From the NCBI GenBank assembly GCA_030068525.1, contig JASJOS010000006.1, positions 248,001 through 312,000 on the forward strand: a DNA stretch of 64,000 nt, read 5' to 3'. A program made the translations under genes and the position numbers. Shown here one piece after another: positions 909 to 57,808 of this stretch; positions within the stretch are counted from its first letter, which is position 1, and the number at the start of each line of letters is the position of its first letter. Under the pieces are notes generated by a model. The model saw only the letters and a program-made list of their open reading frames with translations. It was not told the DNA's origin and searched no databases. This stretch comes from Xanthocytophaga flava (GTDB taxonomy: Bacteria > Bacteroidota > Bacteroidia > Cytophagales > 172606-1).

Positions 909-1238
909 CGAGTTGATTGTTTTTGTTTTTACAAAGGTCGCCGGATAATGGTGGGCTTACTTTGCTAAAAAGTTCAATGTTGCTTTGTTATAAAGTTCAA
1001 CTTCAATGTTTACCCAAGAATAAATCTTTACTGTTGAGTTTATGTAAAGAAGGTAGGCAAAGCAATCTCTAATGTGAGAAAATAGTCATAAACTACACTT
1101 TGGTATGTCAGAACGAAGATAATTGAAGGTGGTTTATAAAGATATAAGTTTGATTTCTAATGATTTATCTACTTTGTGACTTCTTTTTTGAATAAAAGAA
1201 AAAAAGGTATATGTGTATGGTAATGAACAAATTATGAC

Positions 1239-1268
1239 TTTACAGGTGGGATGGATGTAGTATCTTTG
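1239..1268 (+). promoter_or_regulatory. Bacteroidota-type promoter of small RNA copy A
   Basis: TTTA at 1239-1242, an 18-bp spacer, and TATCTTTG at 1261-1268, which fits the TAnnTTTG minus-7 box of Bacteroidota housekeeping promoters. The same promoter, with a 20-bp spacer, precedes copy B. The upstream AT-rich stretch from about 1207 is also conserved between the two copies. Confidence 0.65.
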
Positions 1269-1272
1269 TATT

Positions 1273-1391
1273 GTAAGTCAAGCAGATATATCCTCAGATA
1301 TCAAGTCTGATTAAAATATAAAAATACGAATTTAGGTTGTAAGTGGTTTGTTACTGAAATTCTCCGAAGGTCTCCCTCGGAGAATTTTTGT
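1273..1391 (+). ncRNA. Putative small RNA, copy A, ending in an intrinsic terminator
   Basis: A transcript of about 120 nt is predicted from just after the TATCTTTG box to the U-tract after 1386. It contains a small hairpin (TCAGA 1294-1298 with TCTGA 1306-1310), a long conserved unpaired core (about 1311-1357) and a terminator hairpin (1358-1386, AATTCTCCGA paired with TCGGAGAATT) followed by TTTTTGTTTTT. A second copy lies on the minus strand at 56901-57017. The unpaired core is identical in the two copies, while the hairpins vary. No open reading frame of note is inside. The family is not recognised. It lies in an otherwise gene-free stretch (909-1531) in which nothing else was identified. 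Confidence 0.65.
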
Positions 1392-1531
1392 TTTTAGAAG
1401 TGTAAAGTATTGTTTATCTATCAACAAATGATCAGATAAAACATTTGTTGTCGCAATTCCACCCATACTTTGACGGATATACACAGCATGCAATGAAGTA
1501 GAAATGGTGAACTTTGTGAAAAAAGATCACT

Positions 1532-2053
1532 ATGATACCTACATCAGAAAAAGATACACTTTATGAGGCATTGGCAGAAGCCTTTGAAGCCTTTATCTCA
1601 ACGATTTCTCAATTTGATGAATCGGTTGTAAATACTGCTCCCTTTACTGGAAGCTGGACTCCAGCTCAGGTAGTTACACATATTTTGCTAGCTACAGATG
1701 GTCTTCCCGACAACAAGACAACGTCTACAAATCGTGTGTATGATTCCTGTCTTCCTCAGATTCGTCCTAGATGGGAGGACTTGAACCAAAAATTTCAGTC
1801 ACCTGAAAGCCTTGAACCAGATAGTCTGCCTCATGAAAAAAGCGAACTTGTCACTGAACTAAAACGTGTGAAGGATAAAGACCTGGCTATTGTCAGAGAA
1901 AAAGATCTGAGTATTATCTGCCAGGATTTTGAGTTGCCCAGCATTGGGTATCTTACCCGGTATGAATGGCTCTGGTTTATCCAGATGCATTTGAAACGTC
2001 ACCAGTTTCAGTTGGAAAATATAGTAAACAGAAGTCTTGAGGCAGGAAGATAA
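1532..2053 (+). CDS. DinB-like (DinB/YfiT superfamily) protein
   Basis: A 173-residue cytoplasmic protein with the features of the DinB-like four-helix-bundle superfamily, members of which bind a metal with three histidines and often act as thiol-dependent transferases. Visible signs are the motif GSWTPAQVVTHIL near residue 50, which gives the first histidine, and the C-terminal helix WLWFIQMHLKRHQFQLENI, which gives the His-x3-His pair. Length is typical. The start is ATG at 1532 preceded by the A-rich leader GAAAAAAGATCACT. It stands alone, ending in a strong hairpin terminator. Substrate and partner thiol are unknown. Confidence 0.8.
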   Translation: MIPTSEKDTLYEALAEAFEAFISTISQFDESVVNTAPFTGSWTPAQVVTHILLATDGLPDNKTTSTNRVYDSCLPQIRPRWEDLNQKFQSPESLEPDSLPHEKSELVTELKRVKDKDLAIVREKDLSIICQDFELPSIGYLTRYEWLWFIQMHLKRHQFQLENIVNRSLEAGR

Positions 2054-56618: not shown

Positions 56619-56900
56619 GCCATGCCATAGTTTGTCTGATTACGATTGAGGAAATATTGTTATCAAGTATAGCAAATCCAATCGATTAGTTCCCTATCCT
56701 CCAAGTTTTGCCAGCTCTTTTAATCAGCTTTCACTGTTCTTTCTGATTCAAAGTTTCTGTTTATTGAAACAGATCTACTTTTTCTGGTAGTCATCGCTTT
56801 TGTATTCTATTTTAACGGGTAAATATATTGTAGCTGGTTCTGCATGCTTTGGTTTGTAACCCGGATGCTGTAGAAATCGCAAGTCCTATTGGTACAAAAC

Positions 56901-57017
56901 AAAAATTCTCCGAAAGATGCTTTCGGAGAATTTCAGTAACAAACCACTTACAACCTAAATTCGTATTTTTATATTTTAATCAGACATTATGTCTGAGGAT
57001 ATATCTACTTGACTTAC
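56901..57017 (-). ncRNA. Putative small RNA, copy B
   Basis: The minus-strand counterpart of the RNA at 1273-1391, about 88-90% identical over some 185 bp including the promoter. Its hairpin near the 5' end is TCAGAC/GTCTGA (56980-56996) and its terminator is a perfect 13-bp stem AATTCTCCGAAAG/CTTTCGGAGAATT (56904-56932) followed, on the minus strand, by TTTTTGTTTTG. Compared with copy A, bases differ in the hairpins but pairing is kept; the core ATACGAATTTAGGTTGTAAG and its continuation to the terminator are identical. It sits in the otherwise empty gap 56619-57277. Confidence 0.65.
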
Positions 57018-57021
57018 AATA

Positions 57022-57053
57022 CAAAGATACTACATTCATACCCCTCTTGTAAA
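57022..57053 (-). promoter_or_regulatory. Promoter of small RNA copy B
   Basis: On the minus strand TTTA (57053-57050) and TATCTTTG (57029-57022) are separated by 20 bp, the same boxes as in copy A. Confidence 0.65.
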
Positions 57054-57277
57054 GTCATAATTTACTCATTATCATACATATATACCTTCCTTCTGGATTT
57101 TTGAAGAAAAAAAGGGTTTTACAGGTGTAATACATTGTAATAGAGCTATATAGGACCTTTTAAGGATGCAGATAATTGATTGTTTTTTACAACCGTATAG
57201 TGAGATGTACAAAAAGTTACCAAATATGTACACCAGATTGTACGGGTTTGTAAAGGGAAGCTTAGAAAATGAGAGTT

Positions 57278-57808
57278 TCATTTTTGCTCTGATACTGTAA
57301 CTACCAGCACTTTAGCTGTTACAAGCAGTTGCCCTACATGACGCTGAGTATGTTCGGCTGCATGAAAAAGCAAACCTAGTACTGTAGAGGGAACCTGACC
57401 TCTGCCGACTCCGCGTACTTCCGTAAGGGTATTTTCCTTTGTTGTGCACAATTGATCTAAAGCCATTATTAACTGTGTATCAAAAGCTTGTAATAGTTCT
57501 TGTGTAGTAGTGGAAGGAGTAGGAGACTTGCCTTCCAAAGAAAGCGAATGCAATTGTTGTTCGGTCAGTGCTTGTCCTCTGGCATACGTAAACAATCTGT
57601 CAAGTATTCCTGCCAGATGCTGAAGATGGAATCCAACAGATGCTACACCACCAGGACATTCCCAAAGCAAGGTATCTGGAAAATCTTTTAGATAGGTGTG
57701 TATTTCTTCCTGAGCTTGTAAAAGAGCATGAGCCACAGGTTGAAGTAAAGGAGGTACATCCGGTAGTGGCCCTCTGAGCCAGACTTCCAGCTTTTGTGTA
57801 TTGTTCAT
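57278..57808 (-). CDS. DinB family protein
   Basis: 176 residues of the DinB-like four-helix bundle: SVGFHLQHLAGILDRLFTYA gives the first histidine near residue 64, and LLFHAAEHTQRHVGQLLVTA the C-terminal His-x3-His set. The metal site looks complete. Such proteins are often thiol-dependent transferases or stress-induced proteins. It is the second DinB-like gene in the window, and its sequence is not close to the one at 1532. No operon partner is evident. Confidence 0.88.
   Translation of the reverse strand: MNNTQKLEVWLRGPLPDVPPLLQPVAHALLQAQEEIHTYLKDFPDTLLWECPGGVASVGFHLQHLAGILDRLFTYARGQALTEQQLHSLSLEGKSPTPSTTTQELLQAFDTQLIMALDQLCTTKENTLTEVRGVGRGQVPSTVLGLLFHAAEHTQRHVGQLLVTAKVLVVTVSEQK

What the first reader, a model, noticed from the sequence alone, without database searches (positions are those of the whole stretch)
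1205..1395. Small RNA gene present twice, 55 kb apart on opposite strands
About 185 bp at 1207-1391 (plus) and 56901-57080 (minus) match closely: same promoter boxes, same predicted start, same 47-nt unpaired core and same terminator position. Neither copy is next to the same kind of gene, so this is not part of a larger duplication. The core, including ATACGAATTTAGGTTGTAAG, is identical in both copies, as expected for a base-pairing or protein-binding region. I do not recognise the RNA.
Basis: partly seen in the sequence, partly recalled or inferred. Interest (0 to 1): 0.8.

Follow-up and report, generated by a model that had tools for sequence, protein, structure and literature searches.

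The report
Ten-copy small RNA gene family
A bacterium of the order Cytophagales carries ten copies of an undescribed small RNA gene whose unchanging middle part fits the start sites of many messenger RNAs, so it may hold down the making of many proteins at once, much as a known small RNA family does in gut Bacteroides.

Summary
The ~190-bp unit occurs 10 times in this genome, not twice, and 10 times at corresponding loci in a sister species; the two other genera held of the family have one to three copies, and Flectobacillus-type genomes one. An upstream element, a TAnnTTTG box, a 24-nt core and a terminator are kept; 12 of 14 terminator pairs show compensatory changes, so it is very probably a transcribed RNA gene. 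The likely ancestral site lies behind tex. Rfam has no match. The core fits translation initiation regions: of 1,633 start regions 102 pair at -10 kcal/mol or better, against 50 control windows, and 0 of 826 shuffled cores equal that excess. The signal sits on the core's 3' half, recurs weakly in sister genus g3, and is absent from a Cytophagales plasmid without the core. Best reading: a multicopy antisense sRNA family blocking translation initiation, working like FopS of Bacteroides, though this genome shows no RRM_1 or Hfq gene. No target was shown to be conserved between genera, and there are no transcript data.

The parts
1205..1395 (+). copy 1 of the sRNA unit (upstream element to terminator)
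   Evidence: (self match and 9 further full copies), alignment
1214..1244 (+). upstream element TGTATGGTAA-N7-ATTATGACTTTACA, including the -33 region
   Evidence: 10 matches in G000 and 10 in G002, each in front of a copy, none in G003 and G004; the TGTATGATAA-like part is seen in g2 and g3
1261..1268 (+). -7 box TATCTTTG (TAnnTTTG type)
   Evidence: TAnnTTTG in all 23 rows and in the four g3 loci; the consensus is recalled
1275..1395 (+). predicted transcript of about 120 nt, without an ATG
   Evidence: fold z -3.15; 5' end inferred from the box
1290..1315 (+). 5' hairpin region, exchanged between copies
1329..1352 (+). core AATTTAGGTTGTAAGTGGTTTGTT (proposed seed)
1357..1387 (+). terminator stem, arms 1357-1370 and 1374-1387, followed by a T run
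   Evidence: 12 of 14 pairs with changes on both sides
56896..57088 (-). copy 2 of the sRNA unit
57048..57078 (-). upstream element of copy 2
56938..56961 (-). core of copy 2, identical
1532..2053 (+). neighbour of copy 1: DinB_2 family protein
57278..57808 (-). neighbour of copy 2: DinB_2 family protein

Best explanation
A family of ten closely alike, separately transcribed, trans-acting small RNAs. Each RNA has a variable 5' hairpin, a 24-nt mostly unpaired core and an intrinsic terminator. The core base-pairs with translation initiation regions of many mRNAs (membrane, lipoprotein and secreted proteins look somewhat over-represented among the best fits) and blocks ribosome entry. An upstream element found only in front of the copies suggests that one regulator switches them on together, the copy number raising the dose. 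Shown here: the gene family, its conservation, the covariation, and the excess of complementary sites at start regions. Inferred: transcription, repression, common control and the identity of targets.
For: Ten full copies in each of two species at corresponding loci; one in each of 3 g2 genomes, 3 in G004 and 2 in G006 at E below 1e-10. Between L001 and L033 the core columns agree 27 of 28, the terminator columns 23 of 40. Terminator: 94% of cells paired, slid versions 46-65%, 12 of 14 pairs with two-sided changes. Start regions of G000: 102 of 1,633 pair at -10 kcal/mol or better, 52 of 1,631 upstream windows, 48 of 1,634 inner windows; 0 of 826 dinucleotide shuffles of the core reach that difference. 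G004 with its own core variant: z 0.9, 1.1, 2.3, 2.2 at -8, -10, -11, -12; Persicobacter plasmid: z -0.1 to -1.4. Of 19 windows of 16 nt along the RNA, the two on the core's 3' half reach z 3.2 and 3.6; the next is 2.0, in the terminator.
Against: No expression data. Two candidate genes followed to seven genomes keep no common site: the 14-bp site of a 181-aa membrane protein gene is unchanged in G002, whose start region is the same over the 75 bases shown, but is not at that place in g2 or g3. A5C3 permutations such as CAAACCAA (51) and CCAAACAA (49) stand before ATG nearly as often as AACAAACC (52) in 2.06 Mb. Of 61 near-complements of the core, 19 lie at a possible start, against 16% of random places and 18 of 81 sites of shuffled patterns. 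Without subtracting control windows 8 to 25 of 300 shuffles reach the G000 counts. The negative control is 600 kb of one plasmid of a distant family, 364 ORFs, with low power.
Confidence: 0.66

Rival explanations
1. The core is a binding site for a protein, and the ten copies titrate that protein (as CsrB does for CsrA) or deliver it.
For: The core is kept as a mostly unpaired block with invariant and free columns; a high copy number suits titration.
Against: It does not predict complementarity to start regions, which peaks on the core. No RRM_1 and no Hfq match in the own genome; other RNA-binding families were not searched.
Confidence: 0.18
2. The core pairs with one other RNA (another sRNA or one conserved mRNA) and not with many start regions.
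For: The core is nearly unchanged over genera, which one conserved partner would explain. One-mismatch complements of an 18-base part of the core exist in G003 (two) and G005 (one), though none in G000 and G002 below two mismatches; whether they are orthologous was not checked.
Against: The start-region excess concerns dozens of ORFs.
Confidence: 0.1
3. A short mobile repeat (REP or MITE type) that happens to carry promoter-like and terminator-like parts.
For: Dispersed, multicopy, short, and exchanged between loci.
Against: All ten sites are filled in both species; the own genome shows only 19-35-base matches beyond the full copies; compensatory terminator changes; the same build behind tex in three genera. 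Terminal repeats and target duplications were not examined.
Confidence: 0.03
4. A cis-acting leader or attenuator of the downstream gene.
For: Copy 1 and the copy of L010 stand 131 bp before a same-strand ORF.
Against: In 5 of 10 G000 copies (L002, L003, L004, L006, L009) the next downstream ORF of at least 60 codons is on the opposite strand, and the downstream ORFs differ from each other.
Confidence: 0.03

Closest known systems
FopS sRNAs (and GibS) of Bacteroides thetaiotaomicron, PMC11697453
   Different: Another order of the phylum; the core here lies behind a 5' hairpin, not at the 5' end; no RRM_1 protein of the RbpB kind was found in the own genome; no Rfam match. Whether the sequences are related could not be tested, since the FopS letters are not in the text that I read. 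A phage carries the FopS sequence; here predicted viral contigs carry only a look-alike core.
Multicopy sRNAs of other phyla (Qrr, LhrC, OmrA/B), as named in PMC11697453
   Same: Paralogous copies thought to act together by a shared seed.
   Different: No sequence relation is claimed; no Hfq gene was found in the own genome.
AATTTAGGTT-AATAATT-GGTTTGG elements in a genome of the same class but another order (G391: L311, L315) and in predicted viral contigs (L319, L388, L395, L396 and others)
   Same: Both half-sites of the core with a hairpin right behind, whose arms differ between copies.
   Different: A spacer of 7 instead of 6 nt and other letters in it; the viral hits were found with a pattern that already held both half-sites, so the likeness is partly by selection; a T run behind the hairpin is plain in only two of the nine viral contigs (L395, L424). 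Common descent is unproven.

Membership tests
FopS / GibS family | many paralogous copies per genome | tested here: met
   10 and 10 copies
FopS / GibS family | single-stranded conserved seed followed by an intrinsic terminator | tested here: met
   the core is internal here, at the 5' end there; part of the core pairs in the minimum-energy folds
FopS / GibS family | sequence of the R1/R1' seed | not testable with these tools
   letters not in the parts of PMC11697453 that I read; Rfam gave no match, and whether the deposited FopS model is in the held release is not known
FopS / GibS family | association with the RRM-1 protein RbpB | tested here: not met
   no RRM_1 match in the own genome at E 0.001; the control rings in Bacteroides ihuae
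FopS / GibS family | pairing with translation initiation regions | tested here: inconclusive
   statistical excess; no single target proven
Any of the 4,227 Rfam families | score at or above the gathering threshold | tested here: not met
   0 matches in the window and in 7 loci
REP / MITE repeat | decayed copies and empty sites | tested here: not met
REP / MITE repeat | terminal inverted repeats or target duplications | not tested
Multicopy base-pairing sRNA (as a kind) | an independent transcript of 50-250 nt | not testable with these tools
   no RNA-seq; only kept promoter parts and terminator

The most novel reading that the evidence does not exclude
AATTTAGGTT-(6-7 nt)-GGTTTG is a wide Bacteroidota seed module: hosts carry it in multicopy sRNA families that act on many mRNA start regions without Hfq or RRM chaperones and are kept alike by gene conversion, and phages carry look-alike copies in their tRNA arrays, joining in or disturbing that network.
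Probability: 0.2. Interest if true: 0.82.

Novelty: new member of a known kind. Interest (0 to 1): 0.58.

Why it matters
What I know of small RNA control in Bacteroidota comes mostly from Bacteroides (recalled; the search listings agree). This would be a second multicopy family, in environmental Cytophagales, with a seed that can be computed on, a core variant in a sister genus as a natural test, and no RRM_1 or Hfq gene beside it. Since ribosomes of Bacteroidia do not recognise Shine-Dalgarno sequences (abstract of PMC9976891 in the listing), an antisense RNA aimed at many start regions makes it testable what such an RNA has to block. The exchange of 5' hairpins between loci while flanks stay orthologous would be a striking case of concerted evolution in an sRNA family.

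Tried and rejected
Rfam at gathering and at E 10 gave nothing or noise. A search for long complements of the core in five genomes gave 130 hits that are not the copies, against 40 for the reversed pattern; the reversed pattern is a poor control, and of the 61 sites whose surroundings I read, 19 lie at a possible start, so I do not use it as evidence. In the same call the 2.06-Mb sample held 12 such sites, five of them the copies themselves, against a mean of 2.7 (0 to 8) for 30 shuffled patterns. 8-mer enrichment was weakened by the permutation count. Two candidate targets were followed to seven genomes without a site kept beyond the genus; at other places G004 and G006 show fits of -17.4 (membrane protein gene) and -20.0 kcal/mol (FtsW-like gene) with their own core, for which no control was run. 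Of 91 of 390 order genomes with model matches at E 0.05 I take only f1 and the two f10/g122 genomes, all with a match below E 1e-10, as the family. The f19 matches are mostly 3' ends of an RND-type gene with a look-alike element. L310 (E 3e-6) is a terminator without the core. L042, L102 and L103 lack the build and were treated as chance. L360 and L328 match the core but show no terminator. A first regulon search had a wrong spacing and found nothing; the right one is. The ECF sigma genes behind L010 and L043 are only 27% identical, so this is not taken as synteny. The paper search was too loose to count; searches listed no paper on sRNAs of Cytophagales in the held library.

Full report
OBSERVATION. 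The window is bases 248001-312000 of contig C60 of a 9.49-Mb genome. The other eight matches of that search are 19-35 bases long. The sister species G002 also has ten. A third genome of the genus, G001 (72% complete, 4.5 Mb), shows none. Two other genera of the family are held. Three g2 genomes have one core each; the model adds one weak match in G003 (E 5e-4). In g3 the pattern finds two each; the model finds three in G004 and two in G006 at E below 1e-10, and one weaker match in each. Two genomes of f10, genus g122, have one each. In 390 genomes of the order, 10 have a core match within 3 mismatches; one of the 10, G229 (L042), shows no terminator.

NAMES. A scan of 84,980 named genomes with a degenerate core gave 11 loci: Rhodocytophaga aerolata (two), four Cytophagales MAGs, Flectobacillus (two), one 'Cellulophaga' record that reads like Flectobacillus, and two that look like chance (Fictibacillus, MAG SMBSF64). 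The loci of G006 read the same as those of R. aerolata, so g3 is Rhodocytophaga; g122 is Flectobacillus by the same kind of likeness. No call names the own genus; Xanthocytophaga, of the same family, is my guess from genome size.

ANATOMY. An alignment of 20 g1 copies and 3 g2 copies shows a TGTATGATAA-like element, a -33 region, a TAnnTTTG box, a 5' part, the core AATTTAGGTTGTAAGTGGTTTGTT, and a terminator. The core is identical in the 20 g1 and 3 g2 copies. The predicted RNA of copy 1, about 120 nt, holds no ATG. Both window copies fold better than all of 200 shuffles (z -3.15 and -3.88); the minimum-energy folds pair part of the core, the centroid of copy 2 leaves it open. Between L001 and L033 (g1, g2) the core columns agree 27 of 28 and the terminator columns 23 of 40. 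In 29 sequences (25 distinct), chosen from g1, g2, g3 and g122 without L042 and without the third G004 copy, 12 of 14 terminator pairs have changes on both sides; 94% of cells pair, against 46-65% in slid versions. The 31-base upstream pattern, with up to 3 mismatches, matches 10 places in G000 and 10 in G002, each in front of a copy, and none in G003 and G004, where only its first part is seen.

ORIGIN AND EVOLUTION. Each of the ten G000 copies has a G002 counterpart with the same neighbour on at least one side. One g1 copy, the three g2 copies and one copy in each of the two g3 genomes lie behind a tex gene, with about 0.5-0.66 kb between tex and the core (for L095 by a match of 150 residues only), so this is the likely ancestral site. 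I compared each G000 copy with its ortholog and with the nearest of 18 paralogs, which favours paralogs in short stretches. The ortholog is nearest in the 5' flank in 10 of 10, in the promoter in 5 (2 ties, 3 paralogs), in the 5' part of the RNA in 0 (1 tie, 9 paralogs), in the terminator in 8 (2 paralogs), in the 3' flank in 9 (1 paralog). Identical 5' hairpin stretches at non-orthologous loci (L026 and L030; L010 and L031; L006 and L009; L008 and L027) are plain. Gene conversion is the simplest reading.

FUNCTION TEST. I called 1,634 ORFs of 90 codons or more in 2.06 Mb of G000 and scored ungapped pairing of 22 nt of the core with start regions (-40 to +20) and two control windows per gene. 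Windows holding the core were to be dropped, but none did; 1 start window and 3 upstream windows ran off the ends. At -10 kcal/mol or better: 102 of 1,633 start regions, 52 of 1,631 upstream windows, 48 of 1,634 inner windows. The difference between starts and mean control, 52, is reached by 0 of 826 dinucleotide shuffles of the core (mean 7.5, sd 12.3); at -11 by 1, at -12 by 3, at -13 by 28 of 826. Without control windows 8 to 25 of 300 shuffles reach the start counts. Full duplex energies gave 23 against 10.6 at -18 (0 of 40 shuffles) and 1 to 8 of 40 at milder thresholds. In G004 with its own core (334 ORFs) z is 0.9, 1.1, 2.3 and 2.2 at -8, -10, -11 and -12. In 364 ORFs of 600 kb of a Persicobacter plasmid, where the exact core is absent, z is -0.1 to -1.4; its chromosome was not seen, but no Persicobacter came up. 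Along the RNA, of 19 windows of 16 nt those starting at 1336 and 1342 reach z 3.2 and 3.6; the others lie between -1.3 and 2.0. Among the best 20, 40 and 80 start regions 60%, 50% and 43% of proteins have a hydrophobic N-terminal stretch by a crude rule, among all 35%. By eye, not by a family search, the list holds SusD-like, FtsX-like, OmpA-like and efflux-type proteins.

AGAINST. No site is kept between genera in the two genes tried; the 8-mer signal is partly a general A/C taste of start regions; long complements do not sit clearly at starts. No expression data were available.

PARTNERS. The own genome has no RRM_1 match at E 0.001 and no Hfq match at E 0.01. Other RNA-binding families were not searched.

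WIDER RELATIVES. Of 395 genomes across the phylum 7 match the model at E 0.001: the own genome, four of f19, and two of the same class outside the order. Of these two, G391 has two copies of TTCATAATTTAGGTTAATAATTGGTTTGGT with terminators whose two arms differ together. Nine predicted viral contigs carry AATTTAGGTTNATAATTGGTTTG; in several it stands behind a tRNA-like 3' end or before a tRNA-like gene, and in all nine a hairpin follows, with a plain T run in two. Of the 115 viral stretches with the looser pattern 80 were listed and read. The g1 core is in no viral contig, and the whole unit matches no plasmid or phage record.

COMPARISON. FopS of B. thetaiotaomicron (PMC11697453; abstract, sections 8, 12, 14 and 28 and found passages read) is closest in working: 14 paralogs, a single-stranded seed before a terminator, pairing with the susC start region, RbpB as antagonist. 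I do not file this family there: an RRM_1 protein was not found, and the sequences could not be compared. It may work like FopS; it is not shown to be FopS. In the held library one paper holds both 'Cytophagales' and 'sRNAs', and it is on Daphnia microbiomes (listing).

VERDICT. An undescribed multicopy sRNA family, very probably real, probably antisense at mRNA starts. The confidence was lowered by 0.02 on re-reading, because the negative control is weaker than first written.

Noticed in passing
L072-L085, L087, L088, L090, L091, L312, L314 (genomes of family f19): Behind what reads by eye like the C-terminus of an RND efflux protein stands AAGGTTGGTGGTTTTT with a terminator after it, in many f19 genomes: a possible 3' UTR-derived sRNA with a look-alike core.
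   Followed up: partly
L319, L340, L347, L388, L395, L396, L403, L424, L431: Predicted viral contigs, several with tRNA-like genes beside the element, carry AATTTAGGTTNATAATTGGTTTG followed by hairpins of different arms; six of them have the same 23 core letters as two chromosomal copies in genome G391.
   Followed up: partly
L026 and L030; L010 and L031; L006 and L009; L008 and L027; terminators of L023 and L001, of L004 and L002: 5' hairpin stretches and two terminator types recur at non-orthologous loci of the two species, as cassettes would.
   Followed up: yes
G000:C55:498739-499083 and C61:218081-218572; ORF beside the copy in L009: ORFs starting MHFQYLIIHCTATPAG or MKFQYLIIHCTATPAG recur; two have core complements before the start, one of them three AAACC-type stretches.
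   Followed up: no
L261, L262, L269, L277 (genome G003): Repeated CACTTACC-like stretches, in two cases just before a possible start codon.
   Followed up: no
L097, record 'Cellulophaga sp. BC115SP': The core and its surroundings read like Flectobacillus, so the record's genus name may be wrong.
   Followed up: no
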